A stretch of DNA of 64,000 nucleotides, from contig NC_092234.1 of the NCBI RefSeq assembly GCF_036320965.1, positions 41,809,032 to 41,873,031 on the forward strand. Direction: 5' to 3'. This DNA comes from Panulirus ornatus. Taxonomy: Eukaryota; Arthropoda; Malacostraca; Decapoda; Palinuridae. Position numbers and translations under genes: made by a program. Positions 1,803-64,000 of this stretch are shown in pieces. Position 1 is the stretch's first letter. Every line of letters begins with the position of its first letter. The notes beneath the pieces are model-generated. The model was given only the letters and a program-made list of their open reading frames with translations, was not told the origin of the DNA and did not search any database.

Positions 1803-1948
1803 AGAGTAAGGGAGTGGGGAGGCGTAGGAGGGGAGGGAAGAGTGGCCCAGCCCACGTGGGAGACATCCGCAGCCAAGTTAAACACTTCCAGTCTCATCAC
1901 GTCCTCGACCACCAGCCACCAACACACACATCTGCCTATCACGCCCAC

Positions 1949-2064
1949 GGGTCGAGCTCAAGGGTCGTACCGTCGTGTTCAAGGGCCGTACCGTCGTGCT
2001 TAAGGGTCGTACCGTCGTGCTCAAGACCCGTACCGTCGTGCTTATGGGTCGTACCGTCGTGAGG
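1949..2064 (+). repeat. 21-bp family array (about 5 units), right-arm orientation
   Basis: Tandem units close to GGGTCGTACCGTCGTGCTCA. This is the complement orientation of the arrays at 6.8, 10, 16 and 25 kb. It is one of about 18 locations of the dispersed 21-bp family. No palindromic centre is visible beside it. Confidence 0.95.
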
Positions 2065-2539: not shown

Positions 2540-3012
2540 CTTCGGAGGGGGGGGGGGTCTTCACCCCCACAGAACGGGCTGGGCCCAGACTGTTGGGTTG
2601 GGTCGTTGGTCAACCAGGCTGGTTGGTTGGGTCGTTGGTCGACCAGGCTGGTTGGTTGGGTCGTTGGTCGACCAGGCTAGTTGGTTGGGTCGTTGGTCGA
2701 CCAGGCTGGTTGGTTGGGTCGAGCAAGGTGTTGGAAGCCGCAGCCAGACTGAGGCAGGCCCCCAGAGCCTGGCTGGTGTGGTACACTTTTGTAGGTAGTT
2801 GTCCAGTGCAGTCTTGACCTTGTCTACCGTGCAGCATCCCAGGCTGTTTCTGACGGTAGATGGCGGCCAGGAGGTGTTGAAGAGTCTTGGGCCCCGCCCG
2901 CAGGTTTAAGGTCTTCTCTCATCTTGTGTGCCGACGTCGCATCTTTGGATTTCAGAGGTGGTATTCTACACAGCCTTCCATGACGGTCGTGCCAGCAGCA
3001 GGTTATACCCAT
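2540..3012 (-). mobile_element. L1-type LINE 3' end, copy A
   Basis: Read on the minus strand, this gives the C-terminal end of a non-LTR retrotransposon pol protein: WHDRHGRLCRIPPLKSKDA, then TSAHKMREDLKPAGGAQD with frame slips, TAWDAAR, and finally YHTSQALGACLSLAAAS. The same sequence recurs at 7.7, 49 and 56 kb with very high similarity. The copy is 5' truncated and stops near 3012, where it diverges from copy B. It ends in its own minisatellite (2590-2725). It is a dead remnant with no RT domain. Confidence 0.85.
2590..2725. repeat. 31-bp minisatellite inside LINE copy A
   Basis: Four to five units of about 31 bp with the core TGGGTCGTTGGTCGACCAGG. The unit looks like an amplified piece of the LINE 3' terminus, because its complement reads ...VDQRPNQP, which resembles the SNSLVDQ tail of the family. 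Confidence 0.9.
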
Positions 3013-4066
<1,054 letters not shown>

Positions 4067-5225: not shown

Positions 5226-6010
<785 letters not shown>

Positions 6011-6351
6011 CGGAGGTGGAGGGAACAAGGAGAAGAGGGAGACCAAATTGGAGGTGGAAAGATGGAGTGAAAAAGATTTTGTGTGATCGGGGCCTGAACA
6101 TGCAGGAGGGTGAAAGGAGGGCAAGGAATAGAGTGAATTGGAGCGATGTGGTATACCGGGGTTGACGTGCTGTCAGTGGATTGAAGCAAGGCATGTGAAG
6201 CGTCTGGGGTAAACCATGGAAAGCTGTGTAGGTATGTATATTTGCGTGTGTGGACGTATGTATATGCATGTGGGGGGGGGGGGGGGGGGGGCATTTCTTT
6301 CGTCTGTTTCCCTGCGCTACCTAGCAAACGCAGGAGACAGCGACAAAGTAT

Positions 6352-6795: not shown

Positions 6796-7129
6796 CAGTG
6801 CGACGGTACGACCTTTGAGTAGGACTGTACGACCTTTCAGTACGACGGTACGACCTTTGAGTAAGACTGTACGACCTTTCAGTGCGACGGTACGACCTTT
6901 GAGTAAGACTGAACGACCTTTCAGTGCGACGGTACGAGCTTTGAATAGGACTGTACGACCTTTCAGTGCGACTGTACGACCTTTGAGTAGGACTGTACGA
7001 CCTTTCAGTGCGACGGTACGACCTTTGAGTAGGACTGTACGACCTTTCAATACGACGGTACGACCTTTGAGTAGGACTGTAAGACCTTTGAGTAGGACTG
7101 TACGACCTTTCAATACGACGGTACGACCG
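6796..7129 (+). repeat. 21-bp family array with a 42-bp higher-order unit (about 16 units)
   Basis: Two variants mostly alternate: one carries CTTTGAGTAGGACTGTACGA and the other CTTTCAGTGCGACGGTACGA. The array therefore shows dimer (42-bp) periodicity. It encodes open frames on both strands only because 21 is a multiple of three. Confidence 0.97.
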
Positions 7130-7689: not shown

Positions 7690-8790
7690 TTAAGTCTTCG
7701 GGGGTTTTCTACCTCCACAGCCCGGGCCGAACCCAGGCTGGTTGGCTGGGTCATTGGTCGACCAGGCTGGTTGGTTGGGTCGTTGGTGGAGCAAGGTATT
7801 GGGTTGGGTCGTTGGTGGAGCAAGGTGTTGGGTTGGGTCGTTGGTGGAGCAAGGTGTTGGGTTGGGTGGTTGGTGGAGCAAGGTGTTGGGTTGGGTGGTT
7901 GGTGGAGCAAGGTGTTGGGTTGGGTGGTTGGTACAGCAAGGTGTTGGGTTGGGTGGTTGGTGGAGCAAGGTGTTGGAAGCCGCAGCCAGACTGAGGCAGG
8001 CCCCCAGAGCCTGGCTGGTGTGGTACACTTTGTAGGTAGTTGTCCAGTGCAGTCTTGACCTTGTCTACCGTGCAGCATCCCAGGCTGTTTCTGACGGTAG
8101 ATGGCGGCCAGGAGGTGTTGAAGAGTCTTGGGCCCCGCCCGCAGGTTTAAGGTCTTCTCTCATCTTGTGTGCCGACGTCGCATCTTTGGATTTCAGAGAT
8201 GGTATTTTACGCAGCCTTCCATGACGGTCGTACCAGCACCAGGTTATACCACAATGTAACGTGAGAACCACACCTTCTAGGATGTTCCAGGTATACATGA
8301 TGATATACCTCTCCCGTCTGCGCTTCAGGGAGTAAAGCCTCTGAAATTTCAGCCGTTTCCAGTAATCTAGTTCCTGTACCACATTAATATAGGCTGTGAA
8401 AGGTAATCTGAGCACATTCTAATCCCGCAATTCCGCCTGCCTTGTACAGTTATGTTACAACGCAGCAATATCCATTCAAGTCGTGAAAGAATTAGCGTCT
8501 TGAATAATATCATCATTGGTTTTTCCTGCCTTTTCTTGAAGGTCCGCAGGATCCAGCCTGCCATCCTTCTGCATAGAGCAACAGTTGTTTTGTTGTGTTT
8601 GCTGAAGGTTAGGTCGTTAGACATTATCACTCCGAAGTCTTTCACATTATTCATTTGGTTTTTGATAGCGTCTGTGTCTGTACGGCATTCTGTATTTTGA
8701 TTTCCATTTCTCCATACTAGAGGAGTTGAAACCTATCTCATATGAAATTTATGTCTCTTTGTTGTCTTCCTAGTCCGAGAAAGTCTACCA
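7690..8790 (-). mobile_element. L1-type LINE 3' half, copy B (longest of this family here)
   Basis: Read on the minus strand from about 8790: INFI and DRFQLL with stops; NNVKDFGVIMSNDLTFSKHN (8590-8650); RRMAGWILRTFKKRQEKP; MMILFKTLILSRLEW; LDYWKRLKFQRLYSLKRRRE; RYIIMYTWNILEG; WYDRHGRLRKIPSLKSKDA; then the C-terminal TSAHKMREDLKPAGGAQD, TAWDAAR and LSLAAAS. This is the region after the RT palm through the thumb to the C-terminus of a decapod-type LINE. Frameshifts and stops are present. The 3' end carries a private minisatellite (7735-7975). Confidence 0.88.
7735..7975. repeat. 29-bp minisatellite inside LINE copy B
   Basis: About eight units of the type GGTTGGTGGAGCAAGGTGTT. The terminal unit of copy B has been homogenised differently from copy A, whose units keep GGTCGACCAGG, so each amplification is independent. 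Confidence 0.93.
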
Positions 8791-9707: not shown

Positions 9708-10017
9708 ACGAGGCTGACAATCCTGATGCCGCCTCCCACACCACCACCACGAAACACACCCGACCATTACAAGGCATTACGCGCCATTACCTGCCATTAC
9801 CGGAGGCACGCGGGGGCGAGTCCATTGTCTTGTGCCAGGGGAGGAAGTGCGCCACCTCCAGGACAAAGCCCTGATGAACCATTGTCAGAGTCTCAGGCCA
9901 TATTTATATATCTACTTGACGCTATTTACGTGGGCGAGAGAGTGTGTGATGGGAGCCATCAGTGGCCACCAGTGGAGACATGAGCTGTGTGTTTGGATGT
10001 CTTCTTATACTCATTAT
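9705..10017. other. No gene seen
   Basis: A short degenerate repeat of GGCATTACGCGCCATTACCT lies near 9770-9805. Otherwise featureless. Confidence 0.5.
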
Positions 10018-10384
10018 GACGATACGACCCTTCAGCATGACGGTACGACCCTTCACAGCATGACGGTACGACCCTTCAGCATGGCTGTGCGACGGTACGA
10101 CTCTTCAGCATGACGAAACGACCCTTCAGCATGACGGTACGACCCTTCAGCACGATACGACCCTTCAGCATGACGGTACGACCCTTCAGTACGACGATAC
10201 GACCCTTCAGCATGACGGTACGACCCTTCAGCACGACGATACGACCCTTCAGCATGACGGTACGACCCTTCAGCACGACGATACGACCCTTCAGCATGAC
10301 GGTGCGACCCTTCAGCATGGCTGTGCGACGGTACGACTCTTCAGCATGGCTGTGCGACCCTTCAGCACGACGATACGACCCATC
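10018..10384 (+). repeat. 21-bp family array (about 18 units, left-arm orientation)
   Basis: Units close to GTACGACCCTTCAGCATGAC, many alternating with GATACGACCCTTCAGCACGA. Several units carry small indels. No palindromic centre is visible at either end. Confidence 0.97.
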
Positions 10385-10424
10385 ATGATAATGTTTCGAC
10401 CCTCGGGTGTCCCCACCATCATCC

Positions 10425-11923: not shown

Positions 11924-12290
11924 AATCATGATGACGTCCCAATCCTCCTCCCATCCAATCATGATGACGTCCCAATCCTCCTCCCATCCAATCATGATGA
12001 CGTCCCAATCCTTCTCCCATCCAATCATGATGACGTCCTAATCCTCCTCCCATCCAATCATGATGACGTCCTAATCCTCCTCCCATCCAATCATGATGAC
12101 GTCTCAATCCTCCTCCCATCCAATCATGATGACGTCCCAATCCTCCTCCCATCCAATCATGATGACGTCCCAATCCTCCTCCCATCCAATCATGATGACG
12201 TCCCAATCCTCCTCCCATCCAATCATGATGACGTCCCAATCCTCCTCCCATCCAATCATGATGACGTCCCAATCCTCCTCCCATCCAATC
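11924..12290. repeat. 33-bp array with CCAAT plus near-CRE in every unit (11 units)
   Basis: Eleven nearly identical units. Each contains CCAATCATGATGACGTCCCA, which is a CCAAT box followed 6 bp later by TGACGTCC, a 7 of 8 match to the CRE. Single-base variants (TGACGTCT, GTCCTAATCC) mark individual units. Long open frames on both strands are artefacts of the 33-bp period. Confidence 0.97.
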
Positions 12291-12456
12291 ACCGTGGCCA
12301 TGCTGGTCCTTGCCTCAATATACATCAGTAACGACTCTCGTCCCACCAGCTTCCCTAACGGCCATAAGTGAACCAGCTGTAAAGTCATTACGTAATGTGC
12401 TGACACAACCATCCTCACGTATTTGCCTTCAAAACTACTCGTTATTTGTGTTGCTA

Positions 12457-12490: not shown

Positions 12491-12634
12491 ACTCCTTGGT
12501 ACACCGCCACAGAGCCAGTCTTCACTGAACCTAGGCAATGGTGACGTCAGCTGGGCGGGGGTAGGCGCTGTGCTGCCCCGCCCAGTAAACTGTTACCACA
12601 CTGGAATACCACAGCCCCGTGGGCACCATGGGAA

Positions 12635-12690
12635 GACCCTTGAGGAATACGGTACGACCCTTGAGGAATATGGGACGACCCTCGGGTACA
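12635..12690 (+). repeat. Diverged 21-bp family relic
   Basis: Two to three units of CCCTTGAGGAATACGGTACG. They keep the CGACCCTTGAG core of the dispersed family but have an altered second half. Confidence 0.7.
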
Positions 12691-12842
12691 TACTGCCCGG
12701 GCATCATGGGTGGTACAGCCACTGTGCCCCTATACAATCATCATCGACACACCCTCAAAACGTTCCGTCGTGAATGCCACGTGCCAGGTGAGCCCACACA
12801 CTACCCAAGCTGGCGGTATGCTCACTAAACAGCTACAATGCT

Positions 12843-16117: not shown

Positions 16118-16506
16118 CGCGTGGTACGACCCTTAACCGTGACGGTATGACCATTAGGCACGACGGTGCGACCCTTAACCGTGACAGTACGGCCGTTAAG
16201 CACGACGGTACGACCCTAACCGTGAAGGTACGACCATTAAGCACGACGGTGCGACCCTAACCGTGAAGGTACGACCATTAAGCACGACGGTGCGACCCTT
16301 AACCGTGACAGTACGGCCGTTAAGCACGACGGTACGACCCTAACCGTGAAGGTACGACCATTAAGCACGACGGTGCGACCCTAACCGTGACGGTACGACC
16401 ACTAAACACGACTGTATGTATGAGTGTGGCCTCTGACCTGACCCTGATGAAAGGTTAGGTCAGAGGCTACGTCATCATTGCCAAGGGTCATACCGTCGTG
16501 CTCATG

Positions 16507-16508
<2 letters not shown>
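16118..16508. repeat. Foldback-type element: 21-bp array, palindromic centre, inverted unit
   Basis: The left arm (16118-16413) holds about 14 units of the 21-bp family, with alternate units reading TTAACCGTGACGGTACGACC and TTAAGCACGACGGTACGACC. The centre (16429-16467) has 17-bp arms, GCCTCTGACCTGACCCT and AAGGTTAGGTCAGAGGC, with 15 of 17 positions pairing around a 5-nt loop. The right arm (16484-16507) is one inverted unit, AAGGGTCATACCGTCGTGCT. This locus shows the full architecture most clearly. Confidence 0.85.
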
Positions 16509-18596: not shown

Positions 18597-19275
18597 TGGC
18601 GGCTCCAGTCATGGACGAAGGTCCTCATCAGTGGCGGGTCTTAATTGAGATAATATAAAGTGGTTAGGTTAGGTTAGGTTAGGTTAATGAGAGGAAAAAG
18701 GAAAGATATAGTAAAGTGTTTATGAATTTGGGAGGAAATGAAAAACCTGTCTCGTAAAATGTGCCAGGACATAATTACTGGAAAAGACATGAGAATTCCA
18801 AAGCTTTGAGGTGTATGGAAAGAAGCAGGTATCAAAACGGCCCACGCTTGAGTTGCTGATGGCCATACAGTAATCATGTGACGCAACAGCTCACCCACTA
18901 TTGCGTGGTCTAGCTCGTGGTGTGGGGACACAAGCAGCCACACAGTCATCATGTGACGCAGCAGCTTGTTTAGTATTGCGTGATCTTGCTAGTGGGTTGG
19001 GGGCACACAAGCAGCCACCTCTCGGGAGCAAACACCAGAGTAATACCTATAGAAGAGGGAAAGTGAACCAACATTGTGGCATAGGGAAAGTGATTCAAGT
19101 TTGGAAGTTGGCCCGGGAGAGTTGACAAGTCTGACAGCTTTCGACTCAACTAGTTACACGTAAAGATACAGAGCTAGAACCTGGACCCCAGATATGAGAG
19201 CAGTCACCCCATACAAGGACGGATCAATCCCTTGTATAAACGAAGCAACTAATAGGGGAAAAAAAAGACATTTTA
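18597..19275 (+). mobile_element. Interspersed repeat family R, copy 2
   Basis: Same order of blocks as copy 1, in the same orientation, about 1.8 kb away. It carries a 5-unit TTAGG run (18662-18686). It also carries an internal duplication of about 66 bp: GTGACGCA-CAGCT ... GCGTGGTCTAGCT ... ACACAAGCAGCCAC appears at 18878-18940 and again at 18951-19018. The end contains GGACGGATCAATCCCTTGTA. No coding product recognised. Confidence 0.78.
18662..18686. repeat. Interstitial TTAGG telomere-type repeat
   Basis: Five units of GGTTA. TTAGG is the established arthropod telomeric repeat. The run is short and lies inside repeat R. Confidence 0.9.
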
Positions 19276-20040: not shown

Positions 20041-20960
20041 ATCCACGTGCAGTTTCCCGCCTTAGCGAGGTAGCGCCAGGAACAGAAAAAGACAGGACGT
20101 ATTCGTTCATGTCCATTCTCTAGCTGCAATGCGCAGTGCACCGAAACCACAGCTCCCTATCTACAACCAGGCCCCATAGACCTTTCCATGGTTTACCCCG
20201 GACGCTTCACATGCCCTTCTCATTTTTCTCTATCCCGCACACGCCTTTCACCCTCTGCATGTTCAGTCCCCGATCACACATAATCCTTTTCACTCCATCC
20301 TTCTATCTCTAAGTTGGTGTCCTCTTTCTTCTTGTCCCCTCCATGTCTGACACATATATCCTCTTTGTCAACCTTTCCCCTCTCATTCTCCCCATATGCT
20401 TGAACCATTTCAACACACCCTCTTCTGCTCTCTCAACCACATTCTTTTTATTACCATACCTCTCTGTTACCGTTTTATTACTCAGATCGATCAAACCACA
20501 TATTGTCCTCAAACAGTTCATTTCCAAGACTTCCATTCTCTTCATCTATAGCCCACGTCTCGCATCAATATAACAGTCTTGGGACGACTCTACTTTTAAA
20601 CATATCTATTTTCTCCGTCCCCAGATACAGACCTCTCTTTTATTCTTTAATGCTCCCAGAACCTTTGCCCCCTTACCCACCCTACGACTCAATTCCGCTT
20701 CCATGATTCCACCTGCTGCCATGTTCACTCCCAGGTATCTAATGCACTTTACTTCCTCCAAATTTGCTCCATTCAAACTCACCTCAACTAACCTGTCTCT
20801 CAACCCTCCTAAACCTAATCACATTGATTTTATTCACATTTAATCTCAAGTTCCTCCTTTAACCTCCCAACCTCAGCAGTGTCTCACTCGGATGTCCTAC
20901 CACCAGCACTGTATCGTCAGCAAACAGCAATTGACGCCAGCTGATATAAACATGTAAAAT
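20041..20960 (-). mobile_element. L2-type LINE, RT to 3' UTR, degraded
   Basis: The minus strand reads QLLFADDTVLVVGHPSE, which holds the RT catalytic ADD (about 20913-20924), and then RLVEVSLNGANLEEVKCIRY followed by LGVNMAAGGIMEAELS (about 20700-20800). Next come GKGAKVLGALKN and RMEVLEMNCLRTICGLIDLS with WFKHMGRMRGERLTKR (20360-20540). The end of pol and the 3' UTR (20041-20340) match the plus-strand copy at 6011-6352: GATGGAGTGAAAAGGATTAT, GGCATGTGAAGCGTCCGGGG and the terminal GGCGCTACCTCGCTAAGGCG. Frameshifts and stops make it non-functional. Confidence 0.88.
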
Positions 20961-21645: not shown

Positions 21646-21887
21646 TTCTCATTTCCCTGTATCGTAGATCTTAACCATAAACACTGTAACATTATCAACG
21701 AAGTGTTTGTACTCCGTTCATTCATGCCCCATGACCCAGAGTGCCAATATCCTGTTCGTTAGGTCAATATATACTTCATCATGGATGTACATGTGAGTAC
21801 TAACTGGAGCTCAAACTTCTCATATATAAGTGTAATTCATATAAATCGTCTTCTTGTCTGTTTTACAGACAATGGTTATCATACCCA

Positions 21888-22115
21888 TGGGTCGTATCGT
21901 CGTGTTCAATGGTCGTACCGTCGTGTTCAAGGGTCGTATCGTCGTGTTCAAGGGTCGTATCGTAGTGTTCAAGGGTCGTAGCGTCGTGCTCAAGGGCCGT
22001 TCGTCGTGTTCAAGGTTCGAACCATCGTGTTCAAGGGTCGTACCGTCGTGTTCAAGGGTCGTACCGTCGTGCTCAAGGGTCGTACCGTCGTGTTCAAGGG
22101 TCGTATCGTCTTAAT
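21888..22115 (+). repeat. 21-bp family array (about 11 units), right-arm orientation
   Basis: Units GGGTCGTATCGTCGTGTTCA, with GTATC and GTACC variants. One unit near 22003-22013 has lost bases. No palindromic centre is visible. Confidence 0.96.
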
Positions 22116-22809: not shown

Positions 22810-23140
<331 letters not shown>

Positions 23141-23828: not shown

Positions 23829-24054
23829 GAAGCTGGCCTGGGGTATACCCACAGCGAGACATGGAACATACCCAGATGTGGAGCCTGGCCTGTGGGGAGA
23901 ATTCCCCTTGGCGAGCGAGTGTTTCCCCCTACACCAGACTGACTGCCCATGCTGTTCGCGTCTGCATCCAGCGTGTCCACACACCCACTATAATCAGGTC
24001 ATCAAGTCGTTCCACCTGAACCATTCAGCTCTTACCTCTTTACACGCGAGGTCA

Positions 24055-24150
24055 CGACCCTTGGATACGATGGCCCAAGCCTTTCACCTGACCCTCAAGA
24101 CTTAGGTCAAGAGCAAGGCCGAAATACTCGAGGGTCAAGCCGTGGTGCTC
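24055..24150. repeat. Foldback centre of the 21-bp family, nearly bare
   Basis: ACGACCCTTGGATACGATGG, then a palindromic centre with CACCTGACCCTCAAG against ACTTAGGTCAAGAG, then ATACTCGAGGGTCAAGCCGT. There is one unit at most on each side. It shows that the palindromic centre exists independently of long arrays. Confidence 0.75.
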
Positions 24151-24155
24151 ACAGA

Positions 24156-24318: not shown

Positions 24319-24903
24319 CCAGGCCCTTCCAGTATACATGCAGCCTCCAGCCAGCGGAGAGCGAGTACCCTTGAGCCCCCGTCAGTAATTCATGATCAAA
24401 TGAAGCAGTTCGGGGCGGCTATGATCTCCGTGCTGGTCTCCAGGTTTACCTCGTCTTAAAGCACATGTCTCCATCCGCCACACACAGACGCATCATTAAG
24501 GCTGGGTTCTGGTTCTCGCCTCGGCCATATAGTCTCAGAACTCCAACCTCCCGTCAGTCATCACACACGACGCCACCATCGCTTTGCGTCACCGGCAAAT
24601 GAGATCAGAGTGACACTACGTCATCCAGGAAGTTACAGGTCGCGTCACGTGTTTACAGGTCGTGTCACGTGATGCGCTGAGTCTCATGGTGCCACGTGCC
24701 CGGGGTGTGCTGCTTCCAGTGTCGCACTATGGATGGGGAGGAGAGTTGACGGTGACACAGGGGCTGGGGTCCTGGGGTCCAGTTGGAGAGGCGGAGCGCG
24801 GTCGGCAGCCACTCAGGAACCCAGGTAACATGGTCGCACCTTTAATCATCTACGCCTTTTTCTGAACTGACTATGACTGCGTTATGTTGCCCCTCTTCTC
24901 CCT
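24319..24903. other. No gene seen; E-box duplication
   Basis: At 24634-24672 a 22-bp unit, TTACAGGTCGCGTCACGTG plus a few bases, occurs twice, and each copy holds the E-box CACGTG. No coding feature recognised. Confidence 0.5.
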
Positions 24904-25240
24904 GAGTACGACGGTACGACCATTGAGCACGACGGTACGACCATTGAGAAAGACGGTGCGACCATTGAGCACGACGGTACAACCCTTGAAGAAGACGGTA
25001 CGACCATTGAGCACCAAGATGCGACTATTGAGCACGACGTTACGACCCTTGAGCAAGACGGTACGACCACTGAGCACCAAGGTGCGACCATTGAGCACGA
25101 CGGTGCGACCCTTGGGCACGGCGGTATGACCCTTGAGCACGACCCTTGAACACGACGGTACGACCTTTTCACCATAACGGTACAACCTATGGCCTTCGAC
25201 CCGAACCTCGAGGGTCAGGTCAGAGGTCACTCCTTCAGGG
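24904..25240. repeat. 21-bp family array with foldback half-centre
   Basis: About 13 units in left-arm orientation, such as GGTACGACCATTGAGCACGA, with many variants (AAGA for GCAC, TGCGAC for TACGAC). The array ends in a centre, GGCCTTCGACCCGAACCTCG followed by AGGGTCAGGTCAGAGGTCAC. AGGTCAGAGGTCA at 25217-25229 is an exact DR1 nuclear-receptor site. Confidence 0.9.
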
Positions 25241-25574
25241 TCGTGCACACTGTGAGCAGGACAACATTAACATCCACCCGTCCATTACGTGTCTATATGG
25301 AAACCGACCTTTGATCTCATATGACCAGCTTCCTGGCGTGGAGGCGGTGGCTCACGCCCGGTGTAAAGTTCACCTTCAAAGGTCACGCCCGTCAATGTTT
25401 TACCCTCACTACCAACTGAGGAAGCAAAGCCATTAACGACTAAACCAAACAGGTCATCGCTAACCTCTGACCTCCAACTACCAGGCTCCCCGATCTAAGG
25501 CCGGGTGATTTAGGCTGCTTGTAAAGGTCACACCGCGGGATATCAACGTTTAAAGTTGCACTGCTTTAAGGTCA
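25217..25574. promoter_or_regulatory. Cluster of AGGTCA half-sites
   Basis: Seven exact AGGTCA/TGACCT words lie at 25217, 25224, 25380, 25451, 25468 (minus), 25525 and 25569, plus AGTTCA at 25367. The first two make a perfect DR1. Such a cluster is what an RXR/USP, HNF4 or COUP-type responsive region would look like. Function is not shown. Confidence 0.35.
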
Positions 25575-25990: not shown

Positions 25991-26590
25991 TAAGCCTAGC
26001 TCTCCCGACATTAAAAGACCCTGTGTTTACATCCCTCACTGTCATAATCACATAATAATAACAACAACAGATGTCCACCATGACGTATATCCAACCCAAG
26101 ATAATCACAATATGCGAGAAGCTAAAAGGAAAAACATATTCGTAATTCTAACTAATGATCGAACTAAAAATGGCCTCATTTAGGAGGAAGTAATCAGCTG
26201 TAGTGCATCCCGCCCCGCAGCAGCCAATGAAAACCCTGGAAAAGTAACCTTCCGGCAGCTGTGTGGTCGACGCGACCGTTACGATCCTCCGCCATGATGG
26301 CCCACGTCACCGGGAGGAGGAGGAGGAGGAGGCGATCCCGCGCCCCTCCGACGCCGAAAATGGCGTCGGTACCGAGAGCAATCCGTCCCTCATTATCGTA
26401 CGTGAATTACCCGTGGGAGGTGGTACTCTGGGAGGCAAGTGAGGTACTACATGACCAGTGGAAGATGATACCAAGATTACGATGAGCAGTGGTTCTTAGG
26501 TACACATACTAACACATTTCCTCGACCATGTGTGTATACTAAGTTTGACCGGTGATCTGGGGGCATTAGTATGCTAAACACGCCGAATCG
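25991..26590. other. No gene recognised; contains a perfect hairpin
   Basis: Includes an AGG run (26313-26333) and a perfect 8-bp hairpin at 26348-26369 (CCGACGCC, loop GAAAAT, GGCGTCGG) in a CpG-rich patch. No product recognised. Confidence 0.5.
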
Positions 26591-26690
26591 ACTCAAGGGC
26601 ACGACGGTAAACCCTTGGTAAAGGTCAGGTCAAGGGCGGGGTCATCATACCCCAAGGGTGGCATCATCGCCCTCAGGTGATTAACGTAGA
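26590..26690. repeat. Relic of a foldback centre
   Basis: CTCAAGGGCACGACGGTAAA, then AAAGGTCAGGTCAAGG and GGTCATCATACCCCAAGGGT. It keeps the array unit, the AGGTCA centre and the start of the right arm in decayed form. Confidence 0.65.
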
Positions 26691-28937: not shown

Positions 28938-29362
28938 ACATCAGTGGTAACCAGTAACACTCCCCACATCAGTGGTAACCAGTAACACCCCCCACATCAG
29001 TGGTAACCAGTAACACCCCCCACATCAGTGGTAACCAGTAACACTCCCCACATCAGTGGTAACCAGTAACACTCCCCACATCAGTGGTAACCAGTAACAC
29101 TCCCCACATCAGTGGTAACCTGTAACACTCCCCACATCAGTGGTAACCAGTAACACTCCCCACATCAGTGGTAACCTGTAACACTCCCCACATCAGTGGT
29201 AACCAGTAACACCCCCCACATCAGTGGTAACCAGTAACACTCCCCACATCAGTGGTAACCAGTAACACTCCCCACATCAGTGGTAACCAGTAACACTCCC
29301 CACATCAGTGGTAACCAGTAACACTCCCCACATCAGTGGTAACCAGTAACACTCCCCACATC
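28938..29362. repeat. 29-bp minisatellite (about 14-15 units)
   Basis: Units ACATCAGTGGTAACCAGTAA plus CACTCCCC. Only two positions vary: CTCCCC or CCCCCC, and CCAG or CCTG. Very homogeneous, hence recently expanded or converted. Confidence 0.98.
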
Positions 29363-30450: not shown

Positions 30451-30547
30451 ACACTTCTAGTTTTCGGTTCATTTCTCAAAGTGCCCGGTACCGACCACAG
30501 CAGCTTCGTACCAAGTGGTTTAGGGCCTTCTCCCTGGGGGAAGCCAT

Positions 30548-31275
30548 ATATCCACCTCGTCTGTGAGAAAGGAAACCTTAGATCCACCTCGTCTGTGGAG
30601 AGGAAACCTTAGATCCACCTCGTCTGTGAGAGTGGAAACCTTAGATCCACCTCGTCTGTGAGAGTGGAAACCTTAGATCCACCTCGTCTGTGGGAGTGGA
30701 AACCTTAGATCCACCTCGTCTGTGAGAGTGGAAACCTTAGATCCACCTCGTCTGTGAGAGTGGAAACCTTAGATCCACCTCGTCTGTGGGAGTGGAAACC
30801 TTAGATCCACCTCGTCTGTGAGAGTGGAAACCTTAGATCCACCTCGTCTGTGAGAGTGGAAACCTTAGATCCACCTCGTCTGTGGGAGTCGAAACCTTAG
30901 ATCCACCTCGTCTGGGAGAGTGGAAACCTTAGATCCACCTCGTCTGTGAGAGTGGAAACCTTAGATCCACCTCGTCTGTGGGAGTGGAAACCTTAGATCC
31001 ACCTCGTCTGTGAGAGTGGAAACCTTAGATCCACCTCGTCTGTGGGAGTGGAAACCTTAGATCCACCTCGTCTGTGGGAGTGGAAACCTTAGATCCACCT
31101 CGTCTGTGAGAGTGGTAACCTTAGATCCACCTCGTCTGTGAGAGTGGAAACCTTAGATCCACCTCGTCTGTGAGAGTGGAAACCTTAGATCCACCTCGTC
31201 TGTGGGAGTGGAAACCTTACATCCACCTCGTCTGTGGGAGTGGAAACCTTAGATCCACCTCGTCTGTGGAAGTGG
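30548..31275. repeat. 32-bp minisatellite (about 22-23 units)
   Basis: Units GTGGAAACCTTAGATCCACC plus TCGTCTGTGAGA. Two main variants, GTGAGAG and GTGGGAG, are interspersed. Because 32 is not a multiple of three, frames are quickly closed. Confidence 0.98.
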
Positions 31276-31277
31276 AA

Positions 31278-31485
31278 GCAACACGACAGTACGACCCGAG
31301 AGCAACACGACGGTACAACCCCAGGGTATGGTGTCGTGACTTTCGACCAGACCCCCAAGGATTACGTTAAAGGCCAGGTCATCATATCCAAGAGTCGTCC
31401 CGTCGTGTGCGAGGGTCGTACCGTCGTAACCAAGAGTCGTCCCGTCGTGTGCGAGGGTCGTACCGTCGTAACCAAGGGAGGCATG
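31278..31485. repeat. Foldback-type element of the 21-bp family
   Basis: The left arm is short (ACGACAGTACGACCC, ACGACGGTACAACCC). The centre has TTTCGACCAGACCCCCAAGG against ACGTTAAAGGCCAGGTCATC. The right arm (31390-31480) alternates AAGAGTCGTCCCGTCGTGTG and GAGGGTCGTACCGTCGTAAC, giving a 42-bp higher-order unit. Confidence 0.82.
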
Positions 31486-34630: not shown

Positions 34631-34747
34631 GCGTGACAGTCGGGTCTGTCATAAGGGAGGAGCGGGAGGTGACATCACCAGGCCAGGACGGTGCCAAGGT
34701 CGAGTTCCCCCGGCTGAGCAGGTCTACCCCGCCTCCCCCCACCCTCC

Positions 34748-34855
34748 CCCGGGTACGACCTTAGGGTATGATGACACGACCTTTGACCCGACACTGGAGG
34801 ATCAGGTCAAAGGCCAAGCCATTATGAGTAAAAAGGCCGTAACACAGCGGTAATG
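34748..34855. repeat. Foldback centre of the 21-bp family with a DR1 site
   Basis: GGGTACGACCTTAGGGTATG on the left, then ACGACCTTTGACCCGACACT against GGATCAGGTCAAAGGCCAAG, then ATTATGAGTAAAAAGGCCGT. AGGTCAAAGGCCA at 34804-34816 is a one-mismatch DR1. Confidence 0.78.
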
Positions 34856-37164: not shown

Positions 37165-37167
37165 CAC

Positions 37168-37722
37168 ACGTACTGAAGGATCGTACCGTCGTACTGAAGG
37201 GCCGTACCGTCGCAATGAAGGATCGTACCGTCGTACTCTACGATCGTACCGTCGTAATGAAGGACCGTACCGTCGCAATGAACGATCGTACCGTCGTTCT
37301 GAAGGACCGTACCGTCGTAATGAAGGATCGTACCGTCGTACTCTACGATCGTACCGTCGTAATGAAGGACCGTACCGTCGCAATGAACGATCGTACCGTC
37401 GTTCTGAAGGATCGTACCGTCGTAATGAAGGACCGTACCGTCGTACTGAAGGACCGTACCGTCGTACTGAAGGACCGTACCGTCGTACTGAAGGATCGTA
37501 CCGTCGTAATGAAGGACCGTACCGTCGCAATGAAGGATCGTACCGTCGTACTGAAGGATCGTACCGTCGTACTGAAGGATCGTACCGTCGTACTAAAGGA
37601 CCGTACCGTCGTAATGAAGGATCGTACCGTCGTACTCTACGATCGTACCGTCGTACTGAAGGATCGTACCGTCGTACTGAAGGATCGTACCGTCGCACTC
37701 TACGATCGTACCGTCGTCCTCC
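37168..37722 (+). repeat. Largest 21-bp family array (about 26 units)
   Basis: Units GAAGGATCGTACCGTCGTAC and near variants (GGACCG for GGATCG, CGCAATGAA, CGTACTCTACG). The period is very regular. It leaves open frames of more than 200 codons on both strands (T-V-V-x-K-D-R and the reverse R-R-Y-D-P-S-V), which are not genes: they start and end with the array and contain nothing else. Confidence 0.98.
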
Positions 37723-41393: not shown

Positions 41394-42318
41394 TTATTTC
41401 CTCCCCCTCAAGCATGGGTTACTTCCTCCTCAAGCATGGGTTACCTTCCTCCTCAAGCATGGGTTACCTTCCTCCTCAAGCATGGGTTACCTTCCTCCTC
41501 AAGCATGGGTTACCTTCCTCCTCAAGCATGGGTTACCTTCCTCCTCAAGCATGGGTTACTTCCTCCTCAAGCATGGGTTACCTTCCTCCTCAAGCATGGG
41601 TTACCTTCCTCCTCAAGCATGGGTTACCTTCCTCCTCAAGCATGGGTTCCTTCCTCCTCAAGCATGGGTTACTTCCTCCTCAAGCATGGGTTACCTTCCT
41701 CCTCAAGCATGGGTTACTTCCTCCTCAAGCATGGGTTACCTTCCTCCTCAAGCATGGGTTCCTTCCTCCTCAAGCATGGGTTCCTTCCTCCTCAAGCATG
41801 GGTTACCTTCCTCCTCAAGCATGGGTTACCTTCCTCCTCAAGCATGGGTTCCTTCCTCCTCAAGCATGGGTTCCTTCCTCCTCAAGCATGGGTTCCTTCC
41901 TCCTCAAGCATGGGTTACCTTCCTCCTCAAGCATGGGTTACCTTCCTCCTCAAGCATGGGTTCCTTCCTCCTCAAGCATGGGTTCCTTCCTCCTCAAGCA
42001 TGGGTTACCTTCCTCCTCAAGCATGGGTTACCTTCCTCCTCAAGCATGGGTTACTTCCTCCTCAAGCATGGGTTACTTCCTCCTCAAGCATGGGTTACCT
42101 TCCTCCTCAAGCATGGGTTCCTTCCTCCTCAAGCATGGGTTACCTTCCTCCTCAAGCATGGGTTCCTTCCTCCTCAAGCATGGGTTACCTTCCTCCTCAA
42201 GCATGGGTTCCTTCCTCCTCAAGCATGGGTTACCTTCCTCCTCAAGCATGGGTTCCTTCCTCCTCAAGCATGGGTTACCTTCCTCTCTTCAAGCATGGGT
42301 TACCTCCTCCTCAAGCAA
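41394..42318. repeat. 22/23-bp minisatellite (about 41 units), largest array in the window
   Basis: Units CCTCCTCAAGCATGGGTTAC plus CTT. Three unit types, ...GGTTACCTT, ...GGTTACTT and ...GGTTCCTT, are mixed. The 22- versus 23-bp lengths shift the reading frame from unit to unit, yet all three plus-strand frames stay open for 300 codons or more because no unit contains a stop in any frame. These are not genes. Confidence 0.98.
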
Positions 42319-43295: not shown

Positions 43296-43545
43296 GTGCA
43301 CGACGGTACGATCCTTGAGCACGACGGTACGGTCTTCAGCACGACGGTACGATCCTTCAGCACGACGGTACGATCCTGAGCACGACAGTACGGTCCTTGA
43401 GCACGATAGTACGGTCCTTGAGCACGAAAGTACGATCCTTGAGCACGACAGTACGGTCCTTGAGCACGACGGTGCGATCCTTCAGCACGACGGTATGACC
43501 CTTCAGCACGACGGTACAATCCTTCACGATCCTTGAGCACGACGT
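43296..43545 (+). repeat. 21-bp family array (about 12 units), left-arm orientation
   Basis: Units GTACGATCCTTGAGCACGAC with TACGGTCC variants. Several units have lost 1-3 bases. About 175 bp further on, TCCTTGAGGGTCGACCTCCACCTGACCT (43721-43748) looks like a remnant of a foldback centre. Confidence 0.96.
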
Positions 43546-44559: not shown

Positions 44560-46115
44560 TGACGTTTCATCATCGTGCCAGGCTTCCTTGTGGCGCCTCA
44601 TCTCTGACGCCTCCTACCACCACCAGCGCCGGGAGGCTCCTTCGCCAAGACCATCTATTATGTCCCGACCTGTGACGGGGGCGTGTCTACAGTTTATTGT
44701 CGAACTGTCGTGTGAGGGTGGACAGGTTCAGCGAGATGTGGGTCTCTTGGTAGGTGGAGTCAGAAGGTCCCAGGATGATTCTGCACGTCCTTTTTTCTGC
44801 ATTGTCTCTCTCGCTGGTCCCTCTGTGTGGCTACTAGTAAGGAGTACCAGGCTGGGGAGGCAGAGGCAAGACATTCCTGAGCTGAACTGGCGGGTATAGA
44901 CGGGAGGAGGAACATCTGATGATATGGACTCTTCTTGACTACCCGGAGGATGTCAGGGCCTACTGTGATGTGATGTCAGGGGGCGCCATGATGTTGTCTG
45001 CGCCCATGTTGATGTGCATCATCAGAGTCTGAGTGTGGTTGATGGTGACGTCGTGGGCCGTGGTCCATTCCTGAAGGTTGCTGATGATGTGCTGAAGTGC
45101 ACTGAAGTCAGGAGAGTTGTTGTTGACAGTGATGCCAAAGTTGGAGTCATCTACGTATTTCCAGGGATGGTCTGCGTCCCACAGGGCGTCACTGGTAAGG
45201 ATGAGTAAGAAGAGCGGCCCCATCTTGGCGCCCTGTGGTACACCGCAGTGAGGTCGATGTGGCTCCCGTACAGCGGACGGCTCGGCGTCGCCCGGCCAGG
45301 AAGTCCGCCAGCCACGAGACGAGGTCGACGGCTGTCTTTATGATGAAGTCGACCATGTCGCGAGCTTTATCTATTATGTGTACGCTTGAGGGGTTTACTG
45401 TTTAGGAAGACGTCTCTTGGGTTATCATCTGTAATGTGGTTTTTGGTTCACTGAACACCGATTCATGTTGCCTCTCTACAATCTCACTCACTCACTTCTC
45501 TCGGCAGTCGTACGCAAGTATGTGTTCTTCCGTCTTCAGTAGGCCAGTGGAGTTTGTAGTTCCGGATTTGCGTTTTGCATACGAGTAAAAGTATTCTGGG
45601 TCATTTCTTATTTCACTTGTAGCTTTCTGTGTTTCCTGATATTCACACATTTCAAGGTTGATGTCTGATGATTCATACGCTGGATGTGTTATGGCTTCTT
45701 TATGTCTGCAGTTCTTTTTCGCTTCGTGTCAAGTGTTGGTGTTGTTCGTTCTAACGCCACACCTCTCGTGGTTTCCTCCTCTCGCTGGTGTGGTGTATGT
45801 CTCCTGCGTGTGTGGAGCACCAGAGTGGTCATGTTATATACACATTCCTCCTCTGGTTTACCACTCAGTAGGGTTTACCGTCGTGTCTCAGGCATCTCAT
45901 TGATCACATCATCCCACTTGATCCGTCTACTGTTCAAGCTGAAATGACTGTAAACATCACGACTGCTACGTGAGTTCTGAGCAGGAGGTTTAGCATGCAA
46001 ACTCGTCATTACATCCAGCAGGTTGTGATCAGAGTATACAGTGTTTGACACCATAATGTCACATATTAAGTCCACATCCTTTATAAAGATTAAGTTCAGA
46101 TTCTATTTCTTCTGG
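44560..46115 (-). mobile_element. L4-type LINE: endonuclease end, linker, RT and C-terminal region, degraded
   Basis: Minus strand, in order. VSNTVYSDHNLLDV (about 46010-46050) holds the SDH motif that closes the AP-like endonuclease domain. The linker with DPEYFYSYAKRKSGTTNSTG (45550-45610) follows, then RQHESVFSEPKTTLQMI. The RT palm has CGVPQGAKMGPLFLLILTSD, then WKYVDDS with the catalytic YxDD (about 45140-45160) and DFSALQHIISNLQEWTTAHD. The end has SPAWYSLLVATQRDQRERQC (44800-44850) and ISLNLSTL. Stops and frameshifts between blocks make it a fossil. The family differs from L1, L2 and L3. Confidence 0.88.
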
Positions 46116-47515: not shown

Positions 47516-48024
47516 AGGCTGCGACACGCTCCAGGACCCCAGGTACTGACGATGGCTGGAAGGTGTTGAGCCACACAACTCCAGGTCTTGTGTCTAGCCC
47601 ATGAACCATGCCCTTCTACTACGTGGTCCATCCTGAGGTCTGATCCATCAGGAGACCTCCGGCTCAGGTCTTGCAGCAGGGGTCTTCTACACCCAGAGCC
47701 CCGGCTGTCTGCATCCATGTGATGTGGTCTGAAACATTCCTGAAGTATCGTCTTTCAGATATGCAGAAGACACACTCCAGACTTTATCTCTGCCACAGTA
47801 TAACCAGATCTCCTCTGACAACACCAGACACAGGAAGGACCTCGCTGGTATACCCGGCCACGTCTTCCCCTTCAGGCTGGAGTCATGCTGAAGGACCAGT
47901 CTGTGGTCATCACTACGGGCCTACCCTCACCAACTAGACAGGAGAGCACACATGGGCCTTCGTACCCACTGTGTACGGTACCTCATACGTTTGCCTCACA
48001 ATAAGTCTAGCGGGAGCGTCCACC
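47516..48024. other. No gene recognised
   Basis: Low-repeat sequence without a recognisable product. Confidence 0.4.
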
Positions 48025-52427: not shown

Positions 52428-53399
52428 GGACGCGTCTTAATGTTGCCCTTGTTACCAGCGGAGGAGGAAGTCTGCTCCCTCCCTCCAGGCTACACTAACT
52501 GTACCCGTACATTACACTACCTTCAGCCTGTACACTACACCAGGACCTCCCATCCCACTAGGTCGGGGGTTCGTCAGGACCAGCGTTGTGGGGATCATCC
52601 CACCATGCTGAGTCAGTCAGTGAATATTTACATTCGTGCTCACATAACAACAACCCCCCTCCCACCTTCCGGAGCCATGCATGTACCCCTCACCCACACC
52701 ATCCACTGACGAGCTCTGTCTGTACACAACCAACAACTAAAACATGTTAAGTGAATAAATGAATTATATCTTAGAACATCCTCACTAACTGTCCTTCAAA
52801 TGTGACTGGATAAATATGCAAACAATGTGTGTAGTCCTTGCCTCATCTGGTAAGGGAAAGTCATTCCAACAATATGAATTATGTAAAAGACCACAACGTG
52901 TAAATTGCAGGTACTTAACCAATTACATCACTTAATGTCTCAACTTATCTTTTTCTACTCTCATGCTAATTATGGCACACTTGGAGGACTGAGGTTATGT
53001 ACTTTGTTTACATGAGCGTAGAACTGCTTTCCGTTTCCTCGTATTATGGATGATCCTCGGGCCTGGCGGAGCTCCATGTGAGACAGAGGCTGCGCTATGT
53101 AGCGCGGGGCAGCATGCTCCTGATGGCTCCTGGTCTACTGAATGGTCGTAACCTTTGATGCAAGACATTATGAGCAATGAATACATGAGGACTACATATG
53201 AGGGCCAGCTAGCAGGTGACCTGAGGGTCCATAAAAAAAAAGGTTATCAGCATAAGCAAATCCATCAAATGAGTCAAATAAACCAAGCTAATGACAGTGG
53301 TAGAAACACGAGAGCAAATCACCACCCACCTCTCCCTCTGGCTCAACACCCGACAGGAGAAAGATGTGAGCAAGACGGTGTGACCCGCACAGGATAACC
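52425..53399. other. No gene recognised
   Basis: Relatively repeat-free and AT-balanced from 52700 to 53400. No product recognised. Confidence 0.4.
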
Positions 53400-53615
53400 T
53401 AACCAGTCAAAGGTCAGACGCTCATACCCAAGGGTTCGTGCTCAAGGATCGTACCGTCGTGCTCAAGGGTCGTACCGTCGTGCTCAAGGGTTGTACCGTT
53501 ATGCTCAAGGGTCGTGCCGTCGTGCTTAAGGGTTGTACCCTAGTGCTCAAGGGTCGTACCCTCGTGCTCAAGGGTCGTACCCTCGAGCTCAAGGGTCGTA
53601 CCCTCGTGCTCAAAG
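53400..53615 (+). repeat. Right half of a foldback element: DR1 centre plus 21-bp array
   Basis: CCAGTCAAAGGTCAGACGCT (DR1-type, about 53405-53417) is followed by CATACCCAAGGG and about 8 units of GGGTCGTACCGTCGTGCTCA. Later units change to GTACCCTCGTG. The left arm is missing. Confidence 0.88.
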
Positions 53616-53696
53616 GGTTAAATGCATAAAACGATTTGTAAGGAAGACCTTAATGTCGTCGTGTGATCTGAGAGGAACTAATTATGCAACACCAGC

Positions 53697-54706: not shown

Positions 54707-54784
54707 TGATCTAAACTTATCATAAACAGTACATATAAAACTGTTGCGACTCAGCGTAGGAGTGACTTAAATCCTGGCCTTTAC

Positions 54785-54985
54785 CGGTACAACCCCTTAC
54801 GTATGACGTTACGACTTCTCAGCCTGACCTTTGACCCTCATACCCAATGGCCGTACCGTCGAGCTTAAGGGTCGTATCGTCATGCTAAAGGGTTGTACCA
54901 TCGTGCTTAAGGATCGTACCGTCGTCTCCTGGATCGTACCGTTGTGCTCCATGATCGTACCGTCGTGGATGGCACCGTCGTGCTG
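54785..54985. repeat. Foldback-type element of the 21-bp family with a near-consensus DR1
   Basis: The left side is short (ACGTATGACGTTACGACTTC). The centre holds TGACCTTTGACCC (about 54825-54837), whose complement GGGTCAAAGGTCA is a standard DR1. The right arm has about 6 units of AAGGGTCGTACCGTCGTGCT with variants. Confidence 0.85.
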
Positions 54986-55329
54986 GTAGGGGTAGGACCC
55001 GTCCGCCGTGATGGGAAGGAGAAATGTAAAATCCTGGAGGTGTTGGTCGGGCCGGGCGGGGCGTCACGCCTGACACGTTCCCTGGATGAAGTGGATTTTC
55101 CAGAGCATTTCCCCCTCACCGTGGGTGGAGGAGGCTGGCTGGAAATCCAGGCCGTGATTAGCGAGGGGAGGCGTGGCAGGATGGCTGGACCCAGGGCAGG
55201 GGAGGAGGGAGATGACGTCGGAGGGGAGCAGAGGAGAGCAAGCGGGTGCGGGGGAAGGAACGGTGTGGGGAGACATTCCTGTGTGACACCCCAGCCTGTG
55301 TTTACAGGCTTATTTCTAACCCCGGAGCT
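54986..55329. other. No gene recognised
   Basis: G-rich sequence without a recognised product. Confidence 0.4.
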
Positions 55330-58950: not shown

Positions 58951-59029
58951 GAGTTAATTCCCAGAGACCTGGTCATGTATGGTACCATGGTGTCATGAAG
59001 TGGACATAGCAATCCACGGAAACCACTCG

Positions 59030-59165
59030 AGCACGAGAGTACGACCCTCGAAGACGACAATGTGACCCCCTAGCACGACAGCACGACCCTGAATCACGAG
59101 GGTACGACCCTCAGTCATGATGGCCTGGCCTCTGACCACAGGGTCAAATGACAGGTCGAGGCCAC
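59030..59165. repeat. Foldback-type element of the 21-bp family
   Basis: The left arm has three to four diverged units (ACGAGAGTACGACCCTCGAA and similar). The centre has GATGGCCTGGCCTCTGACC against ACAGGTCGAGGCCACCATC, an extended imperfect palindrome. The right arm is reduced to CCCTCAGGAG. Confidence 0.8.
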
Positions 59166-59684
59166 CATCCCTCAGGAGTCGACCGGTCGTGTTGAACGTA
59201 CACACGACCAAGTCGTCGTCAGTAAGCAACACCGGGAATGTATTAATCTTCAGGCAGGAAGAACATTCACCTCTTACAAACCACACATGATAATTCCCAC
59301 ACACAAGCACAGATCGTGCACTTACACGCAGGTTGGCGAGTACACACACAGACGAACATAAACACCGCCTCCCACACAAACAAGCAAAAAAGAAACTAAA
59401 TCTTGAGACTTAATTGAATCTTCCTCTTTTTTTTTTTCTGAAGTTGACAAGATTAAGTATGATTTACTTCTTTAACATCCACTTATTTATTTATTACGTG
59501 GGTCAAGGTGGTCTGCTCCTACAGACAGACGGACTGACGCCATGCATGTTACCCCCCCACCTCCCCCTGGTTACCCAGCCAAGTGTCATGTGAGTCAGAC
59601 AGTCATGTCGTCAGGCCGGGAGGGGGGGCTGACCCAGGCACAACGGACGCGTCTGTCCTCGACCCGCACCAGCCAACATCACCC
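59166..59684. other. No gene recognised
   Basis: T run at 59428-59438. No product recognised. Confidence 0.45.
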
Positions 59685-60003: not shown

Positions 60004-60159
60004 TGATGGCATGCAGATGACGCCCCCGCTGCTAGTCATGCACACAGCGACGTGCTCATGCATTCATGACAGCATTATGATGTACATGTTTCTGTGCCAT
60101 GCCGCACATCGCCCCCTCCCCCTCTATCCAGGGTACAGGTCAAGGGTGTTGTGCCCTGG
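60004..60159. other. Spacer, no gene seen
   Basis: Ordinary sequence. Confidence 0.5.
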
Positions 60160-60395
60160 GAGCAGTACGACCACGGTACGACCCTTGAGCACGAAAGTAT
60201 GATGCCCTGAACTCTGACCTGTCCCTTACAAGTCAGGTCAAAGGCCAGGCCATTATACTTGAAGGTTGTACTGTCGTGGTGCGGCTAAGGGTCGTACCGT
60301 CGTGGCCATGGGTCGTACCATCGTTTCCCAGGGTCGTACCGTCGTGGCGTGGCCAAGGGTTGTACCGTCGTGAGCATGGGTCGTGCCATCATGTT
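60160..60395. repeat. Foldback-type element of the 21-bp family with DR1
   Basis: The left arm has one to two units (CGGTACGACCCTTGAGCACG). The centre has CTCTGACCTGTCCCTT against AGTCAGGTCAAAGGCCAGGC, with AGGTCAAAGGCCA at 60235-60247. The right arm has about 5 units of AAGGGTCGTACCGTCGTGGC. Both arms and the centre are present. Confidence 0.88.
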
Positions 60396-60474
60396 GGCTT
60401 CACTGGCTTTCAGCAGTGATGCCAACTTCCTGATCGGTGTTCACACCCTGCAGGAGACCCGAGGGAGGACCCCG

Positions 60475-63416: not shown

Positions 63417-63699
63417 ACGGCCGGGATCTTCGCTACCCACGCCTTCCGCCAAACTCCCCGGCAGACAGTGAGTGTGCGTCGTGAGGAAATATTTCTCATT
63501 TCTCCCTGCTCAGCGCCTCGGCCCTCCTGACGCAGGTGTGGTTACGACCTGACGTATCCTGGTCACAGCAGAGGTAACCATCCCTGGCATGGCCTCCTCC
63601 ACACGTGCCTCCCTCAGGATACGTGCGACTCACGCCACGAACAATGAGTCACGGTTTACTAATGACGTTCCCCAGTCGATGGTCCGTCGGACTTGACCT
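63414..63699. other. No gene seen
   Basis: CTCATTTCTCCCTGCTCAG near 63495-63513 resembles a splice acceptor, but the frame after it closes within a few codons. Confidence 0.4.
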
Positions 63700-63935
63700 C
63701 TGGATCACGATGGTCTGATGGACTGGCCTTTAACCTGACTCTTCAAGGGGTCAGGTCAAAATCCAGGCCGTCATACTCGAAGACTCATACCGGTCGCACT
63801 CGAGGGTCGTACCCGTCTTGCTTAAGGGTAATACCCGTCGCACTCGAAGGTCGTATCCGTCGCACTCGAAGGTCGTACCCGTCGCGCTCAAGGGTAATAT
63901 AACCATCGCACTCGAGAGTCGTACTCCCGACCTAC
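63700..63935. repeat. Foldback-type element of the 21-bp family
   Basis: The centre has ACTGGCCTTTAACCTGACTC against GGGTCAGGTCAAAATCCAGG. The right arm has about 6 units close to CTCGAAGGTCGTACCCGTCG, a variant in which CCGTCG has become CCCGTCG. The left arm is missing. Confidence 0.82.
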
Positions 63936-64000
63936 AGAGCAGGAGGCGGCGTTTTAACTTATGCCCGTAAAAAGCGGCCCACCAGAGCACAATAAAACCC

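What the first reader, a model, noticed from the sequence alone, without database searches (positions are those of the whole stretch)
16118..16508. Foldback architecture: 21-bp array, palindromic centre, inverted array
At 16429-16467 the arms GCCTCTGACCTGACCCT and AAGGTTAGGTCAGAGGC pair at 15 of 17 positions. Left of it are about 14 direct 21-bp units, right of it one inverted unit. The same centre appears at 24.06, 25.19, 26.60, 31.33, 34.76, 53.41, 54.82, 59.11, 60.20 and 63.71 kb, with left arrays always in one orientation and right arrays in the other. Established knowledge: Drosophila FB elements have inverted repeats made of short tandem units. Inference: this is a non-autonomous foldback-like element family, possibly undescribed.
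Basis: partly seen in the sequence, partly recalled or inferred. Interest (0 to 1): 0.9.

Follow-up and report, generated by a model that had tools for sequence, protein, structure and literature searches.

The report
Palindromic repeat family with one-sided arrays
This stretch of DNA holds at least ten worn copies of a short palindrome whose arms carry 21-base units, likely the remains of a small mobile element that could not move by itself, and in most copies only one arm has a long array of the unit, probably grown after the copy landed; it is a modest addition to known foldback-like repeats.

Summary
At 16118-16508 there are 14 direct 21-bp units, a palindromic centre whose arms pair at 15 of 17 positions, and one inverted unit. 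Of 11 centres, 10 have at least one arm above the score threshold and 6 have both; the one at 54.8 kb is doubtful. Seven further arrays have no centre that scores above chance. The inferred ancestral unit is a palindrome of about 109 bp: per arm a 32-bp core, AGGGTCAGGTCAAAGGCCAGGCCATCATACCC, then outward one unit, AAGGGTCGTACCGTCGTGCTC.

It departs from a classical foldback element. Arrays are one-sided: 15 of 18 loci have three or more units on one side, 0 of 18 on both. Units resemble others of the same array far more than units elsewhere, so arrays grew or homogenised locally. The two arms of a copy are no more alike than arms of different copies: the hairpin decays and is not maintained. 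Target-site duplications were sought and not found, a sharp common boundary is unproven, no flanking sequence is shared, and copies outside the window could not be searched.

Best reading: a dead, non-autonomous palindromic (MITE-like) transposon family with one-sided amplification after insertion; foldback in geometry, membership not shown.

The parts
16118..16418 (-). left array of the focal copy: 14 units of about 21 bp (outward consensus AAGGGTCGTACCGTCGTGCTC lies on the - strand), with 41/42-, 83- and 124-bp higher-order periods
16429..16467 (.). palindromic centre of the focal copy, arms pairing at 15 of 17 positions; strongest fold of the 11 centres (z -5.9)
16483..16503 (+). single inverted unit to the right of the centre, 20 of 21 identical to the unit consensus; (GT)19 begins 6 bp later
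24039..24155 (.). short copy, about one unit per arm; left arm above threshold
24902..25260 (.). copy with 13 units on the left and about one on the right; right core arm above threshold
26577..26680 (.). short copy, right core arm well kept, left core arm largely lost
31277..31480 (.). copy with 2 units left and 4 right; both arms above threshold; abuts a 32-bp tandem array
34743..34852 (.). short copy, both core arms above threshold, about one decayed unit per arm
53365..53620 (.). copy with one unit left and 8 right; right arm above threshold
54777..54990 (.). doubtful centre (no arm reaches the threshold) with about 7 units on the right
59023..59200 (.). copy with 4 units left and one right; both arms at or above threshold
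60155..60398 (.). copy with 1-2 units left and 6 right; both arms above threshold
63690..63940 (.). copy with at most one unit left and 7 right; both arms above threshold
1945..2061 (+). array of 5 units without a centre above chance
6796..7128 (-). array of 16 units (42-bp dimers) without a centre above chance
10016..10385 (-). array of 17 units without a centre above chance
12625..12745 (-). array of 3 units; by eye followed by both outer parts of the centre with the inner part missing, but not above chance in the test
21868..22115 (+). array of 10 units preceded by GGTTATCATACCCATGGGTCG, a possible outer end of a right core arm (fraction of random stretches as good 0.057)
37167..37717 (+). 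longest array, 26 units, directly after (AAT)17; no centre
43298..43543 (-). array of about 11 units without a centre

Best explanation
This is a dispersed family of palindromic repeats with 21-bp units on their arms, likely the dead copies of a small non-autonomous MITE-like DNA transposon that would have been moved by a transposase made elsewhere, and whose end unit was probably amplified in tandem in one arm after insertion. Shown: the palindromic core, its repeated occurrence, the consistent unit orientation, the one-sided arrays, the local relatedness of units, and the independent decay of the two arms. Inferred: that the ancestral form was about 109 bp with one unit per arm; that the copies spread by cut-and-paste transposition; that arrays grew later by replication slippage or unequal exchange, often in steps of two units; and that arrays rarely grow on both sides because a long perfect palindrome is unstable in replication.
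For: Dispersed related copies: 16 arm hits at score 30 or more, simulated maximum 30 in 1 of 20. In 13 short arms similarity to the unit runs out about one unit beyond the core: 0.80, 0.64, 0.51, 0.42, 0.24 per successive 7 columns, then background 0.25-0.29. No sequence is shared outside: blastn of the 800-bp flanks of 18 loci, tandem repeats masked, gave 8 rows, all overlaps of the same DNA between neighbouring loci. The core has no polarity with respect to the array: same-side versus cross-side arm identity 0.598 v 0.587 (8 copies, p 0.125) and 0.650 v 0.647 (6 copies, p 0.44), as expected if either arm can expand. Local growth: nearest neighbour of a unit lies in its own array for 104.4 of 154 units, shuffled labels mean 12.8, largest 22.7 of 200; identity within arrays 0.80, between 0.717; lag-2 identity 0.858 above lag-1 0.810. 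One-sidedness: 0 of 18 loci with three or more units on both sides, chance 0.0038 from 7 left and 8 right. Age: arms on average 0.746 identical to the core. The mirrored consensus folds as one hairpin, -74.7 kcal/mol as DNA (trivial, since its arms were mirrored by construction).
Against: No target-site duplication signal for lengths 4-10 at three tolerances (p 0.19 to 0.92); a simulated 8-bp duplication of the arms' age would give 65 matches, sd 3.3, against 53 seen and 50.9 expected, so duplications of 8-9 bp are unlikely unless the assumed ends are wrong by more than 4 bp. End phase is not clearly fixed: 13 of 29 ends v 0.44 expected, 8 of 13 v 0.40, p 0.09. The drop is gradual, and those arms were chosen for lacking a second unit. 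One-sidedness among the 11 centred loci alone is not significant (0.12), and the 7 centreless loci are one-sided partly by definition; unit numbers were counted by hand. Only one genomic window was available.
Confidence: 0.55

Rival explanations
1. A true foldback element family (FB/Tm1/Tetris type, mostly Mutator-related): tandem units were part of both terminal inverted repeats of the mobile form, and most copies have since lost units or an arm.
For: Same geometry of inverted tandem units with a central domain. In Tm1 the repeat number differs between the two ends of one element and many copies are MITE-like, senescent or lack duplications (PMC3169594, passages and first part of Discussion). 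Seven arrays have lost, or never had, a centre.
Against: 0 of 18 loci keep arrays on both sides; units are related by locus and not by position; 8-9 bp duplications, found in 45 of 53 complete Tm1 elements (8-10 bp), are absent here by test; no terminal motif: of 9 k-mer tests of the flanks one gave p 0.016 (GAGG in 10 of 29), the others 0.45 or more.
Confidence: 0.2
2. The palindrome and arrays spread without a transposase, for instance as satellite-like DNA through extrachromosomal circles or template switching, so that the copies have no defined ends.
For: No duplications, no fixed end phase, seven arrays without a centre, and the elements lie nearer to microsatellites than random placements (median 335 v 698 bp, 0 of 2000 as near, post hoc).
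Against: Every copy is built around one centre with about one unit kept on the short side; random fragments of an array would seldom keep the centre.
Confidence: 0.15
3. A Helentron-type non-autonomous element (HINE): tandem array plus a 3' palindrome, no target-site duplication, inserted in either orientation, which would make arrays look left- or right-sided.
For: One-sided array next to a palindrome, no duplications, microsatellites nearby; HINEs combine these (PMC7492417, passages).
Against: HINEs have conserved left and right modules with subterminal repeats; no shared flank was found and the core shows no polarity.
Confidence: 0.07
4. A hairpin kept by selection, as a structured RNA or a protein-binding DNA site.
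For: The core holds AGGTCA-like half-sites in a DR1-like spacing (AGGTCA A AGGCCA; motif recalled, not from a call).
Against: Arms of one copy are 0.648 identical, arms of different copies 0.650, permutation p 0.57 (8 copies), so there are no compensating changes; only 4 of 11 centres fold with z of -2 or lower; no Rfam match; columns of the DR1-like stretch keep the consensus in 16.8 of 22 arms against 16.3, 15.0 and 16.1 in the other parts (hand tally).
Confidence: 0.03

Closest known systems
Tm1 Mutator/Foldback family of root-knot nematodes, MITE-like class (PMC3169594; passages and first part of Discussion seen)
   Same: Short tandem units (about 14 bp there, 21 bp here) in inverted terminal repeats around a small centre; unequal unit numbers at the two ends; mostly decayed non-autonomous copies.
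   Different: Tm1 has 7-bp terminal motifs, 8-10 bp duplications in 45 of 53 complete elements and an autonomous MULE partner; none of these was found here, and here arrays occur on one side only.
Tetris, foldback transposon of Drosophila virilis (PMC4079207; abstract, outline and passages seen)
   Same: Tandem repeats inside terminal inverted repeats that expand into longer satellite-like arrays.
   Different: About 220-bp units, larger modular repeats with outer, tandem and inner domains, 8-10 bp duplications.
Drosophila FB elements (recalled; named in PMC4079207 passages)
   Same: Inverted repeats made of short tandem units.
   Different: Much longer arms, arrays in both arms, 9-bp duplications (recalled).
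Cg_HINE Helentron-type elements of the Pacific oyster (PMC7492417; passages seen)
   Same: Tandem array, palindrome and microsatellite close together, no duplications.
   Different: Conserved left and right modules with subterminal repeats; not found here.
Palindromic MITEs in general (recalled)
   Same: Small, non-coding, inverted arms, many dispersed copies.
   Different: MITEs are normally flanked by short duplications, not detected here.

Membership tests
Foldback elements (FB, Tm1, Tetris) | Inverted repeats flanking or forming the element | tested here: met
   13 of 13 unit clusters beside centres are inverted with respect to the centre; core arms inverted, both above threshold in 6 of 11
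Foldback elements (FB, Tm1, Tetris) | Tandem units in both terminal repeats | tested here: not met
   0 of 18 loci with three or more units on both sides (hand count)
Foldback elements (FB, Tm1, Tetris) | 8-10 bp target-site duplication | tested here: not met
   permutation test on 11 centred copies, k 4-10, p 0.19-0.92; power simulated for 8 and 9 bp; rests on hand-set ends, tolerance up to 6 bp
Foldback elements (FB, Tm1, Tetris) | Fixed outer terminus | tested here: inconclusive
   13 of 29 v 0.44; 8 of 13 v 0.40, p 0.09; short arms end about one unit out
Foldback elements (FB, Tm1, Tetris) | Autonomous partner with the same ends | tested here: inconclusive
   No transposase among 10 of 318 non-repetitive stop-to-stop stretches of 60 aa or more; genome not searchable
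MITE | Short non-coding palindromic or inverted-repeat element in many dispersed copies | tested here: met
   10 of 11 centres with an arm above threshold in 64 kb; inferred length 109 bp
MITE | Target-site duplication of fixed length | tested here: not met
   lengths 4-10; lengths 2-3 not tested
HINE (Helentron-type) | Conserved left and right modules outside the array | tested here: not met
   no shared flank in blastn of 800-bp flanks; no recurrent flank k-mer beyond one weak 4-mer
HINE (Helentron-type) | Element polarity (array on a fixed side of the palindrome) | tested here: not met
   core arms show no array-side signature, p 0.125 and 0.44

The most novel reading that the evidence does not exclude
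Each inserted copy of a perfect palindromic transposon seeds a new minisatellite from its own end unit, and growth is confined to one arm per copy because double-sided growth makes a long palindrome that replication removes: a natural one-arm rule for palindrome stability, readable from thousands of copies in one genome.
Probability: 0.3. Interest if true: 0.5.

Novelty: new member of a known kind. Interest (0 to 1): 0.3.

Why it matters
If genome-wide data bear it out, the family would show how a dead palindromic element becomes the seed of many independent minisatellites, and whether palindrome instability limits array growth to one arm. Otherwise it is one more decayed repeat family in a repeat-rich genome. 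The sequence did not turn up in the open paper library by six sequence strings, which says little, since repeat sequences are seldom printed.

Tried and rejected
Fixed end phase: looked convincing by eye, but two automated tests with matched nulls were not significant, so it is not claimed. Target-site duplications: none. Larger carrier element: no shared flanks. Helentron-type polarity: none. Maintained hairpin: no within-copy excess of arm identity, weak folds in 7 of 11 centres, no Rfam hit. Nuclear-receptor-like half-sites in the core: no extra conservation by hand tally. Centre remnants at the seven centreless arrays: none above chance. Recurrent flank k-mers: 1 of 9 tests at p 0.016, not pursued.

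Searches that led nowhere: exact patterns in viral contigs and genome contigs gave 0 matches; these collections hold viruses and prokaryotes and say nothing about eukaryotes. The translated array found one low-complexity protein of unnamed source (P0001, E 3e-7, 37% of query covered), taken as no evidence. Two retroelement-like fragments found no relatives, so the host is unidentified. Paper searches: foldback element with crustacean or tandem repeats, foldback transposon terms, foldback with decapod (0 papers), palindromic MITE minisatellite, foldback with crustacean (5 papers, listing only, none on such an element by title).

Full report
What is there. The focal locus is as described: 14 units of about 21 bp, a centre with arms pairing at 15 of 17 positions, then one inverted unit. 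The window looks eukaryotic: 50 clean microsatellites of at least the sizes searched, many minisatellites and no long non-repetitive ORF. The host was not identified; (GGTTA)5 at 18662-18686 would fit an arthropod telomere repeat, which is recalled and weak.

The family. Eleven centres were read. A 33-base half-arm finds 16 arms with score 30 or more; 1 of 20 simulated sequences reaches 30, none more, and the reversed window has none. Six of 11 centres have both arms, four have one, and 54.8 kb has none. The core reads outward AGGGTCAGGTCAAAGGCCAGGCCATCATACCC and is followed by the unit AAGGGTCGTACCGTCGTGCTC; the 22 arms are on average 0.746 identical to the core. Seven more arrays carry the unit without a centre above chance. 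Two isolated single-unit matches (15209, 21444) were not counted as loci.

Arms decay independently. In the 8 copies with two alignable arms (26.6, 53.4 and 54.8 left out beforehand) the arms of one copy are 0.648 identical and arms of different copies 0.650, permutation p 0.57. So neither gene conversion nor selection keeps the hairpin. Only 4 of 11 centres fold with z at or under -2.

Arrays are local and one-sided. Of 156 units in 16 arrays, 154 in 15 arrays were compared: the nearest neighbour lies in the same array for 104.4 of 154, against 12.8 on average and 22.7 at most in 200 label shuffles; identity is 0.80 within and 0.717 between arrays, and units two steps apart (0.858) are more alike than neighbours (0.810), which points to growth by dimers. 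By hand count, 15 of 18 loci have three or more units on one side and none on both; chance 0.0038 over 18 loci but 0.12 over the 11 centred loci. The core shows no signature of the array side.

Ends. In 13 short arms similarity to the unit falls from 0.80 to background within about one unit and a few bases, but these arms were chosen for being short. Automated calling of the end phase gave 13 of 29 against 0.44 expected, and with local unit profiles 8 of 13 against 0.40, p 0.09. Target-site duplications of 4-10 bp were not detected in 11 copies (p 0.19-0.92 over 21 settings), while simulated 8- and 9-bp duplications of the arms' age would give about 65 and 72 matches against 53 and 53 observed. 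Flanks share nothing.

Interpretation. The simplest account is an old non-autonomous palindromic element of about 109 bp with one unit per arm, whose copies have decayed, and in most of which one arm has grown into a minisatellite. Dispersal, the ancestral form, decay and local relatedness of units are shown or follow closely from the calls; transposition, timing of growth and the instability of double-sided growth are inferred. Foldback elements (Tm1, Tetris) are the nearest known kind, read here in abstract and passages, but two of their defining features were tested and not met, so the family is not filed there.

Limits. A single window; ends set by hand; a query read from the same copies; no genome search; only 10 of 318 ORFs tested for domains, of which one gave a sub-threshold reverse transcriptase and one a chance match.

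Noticed in passing
2735-3017, 7977-8258, 49203-49398, 56217-56399: Near-identical repeat copies (96.8-100% in the pairs listed); the first three follow arrays of a 29-bp unit (TGGGTCGTTGGTGGAGCAAGGTGT-like), possibly the end of a young retroelement.
   Followed up: partly
44963-45337 (-): Reverse-transcriptase fragment, RVT_1 at E 2e-4 but under the curated cut-off; no relative found in the protein search.
   Followed up: partly
whole window, 18 loci: Elements lie nearer to microsatellites than random placements (median 335 v 698 bp; 3 ends within 20 bp v 0.45 expected, p 0.0125). Post hoc; the null avoids microsatellites, which biases it outward.
   Followed up: partly
30539-31277, 41402-42317, 11924-12291, 28938-29362, 48014-48322: Long, clean minisatellites of other units (32, 23, 33, 28 and 13 bp); the first abuts the copy at 31.3 kb.
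   Followed up: no
77-183 / 22928-23034 and 6006-6133 / 20228-20354: Two further dispersed repeat pairs, the first beside (AT)n, the second inverted.
   Followed up: no
core of the centres, e.g. 60229-60245: AGGTCA-like half-sites in DR1-like spacing in each arm (motif recalled); no extra conservation seen (hand tally).
   Followed up: partly
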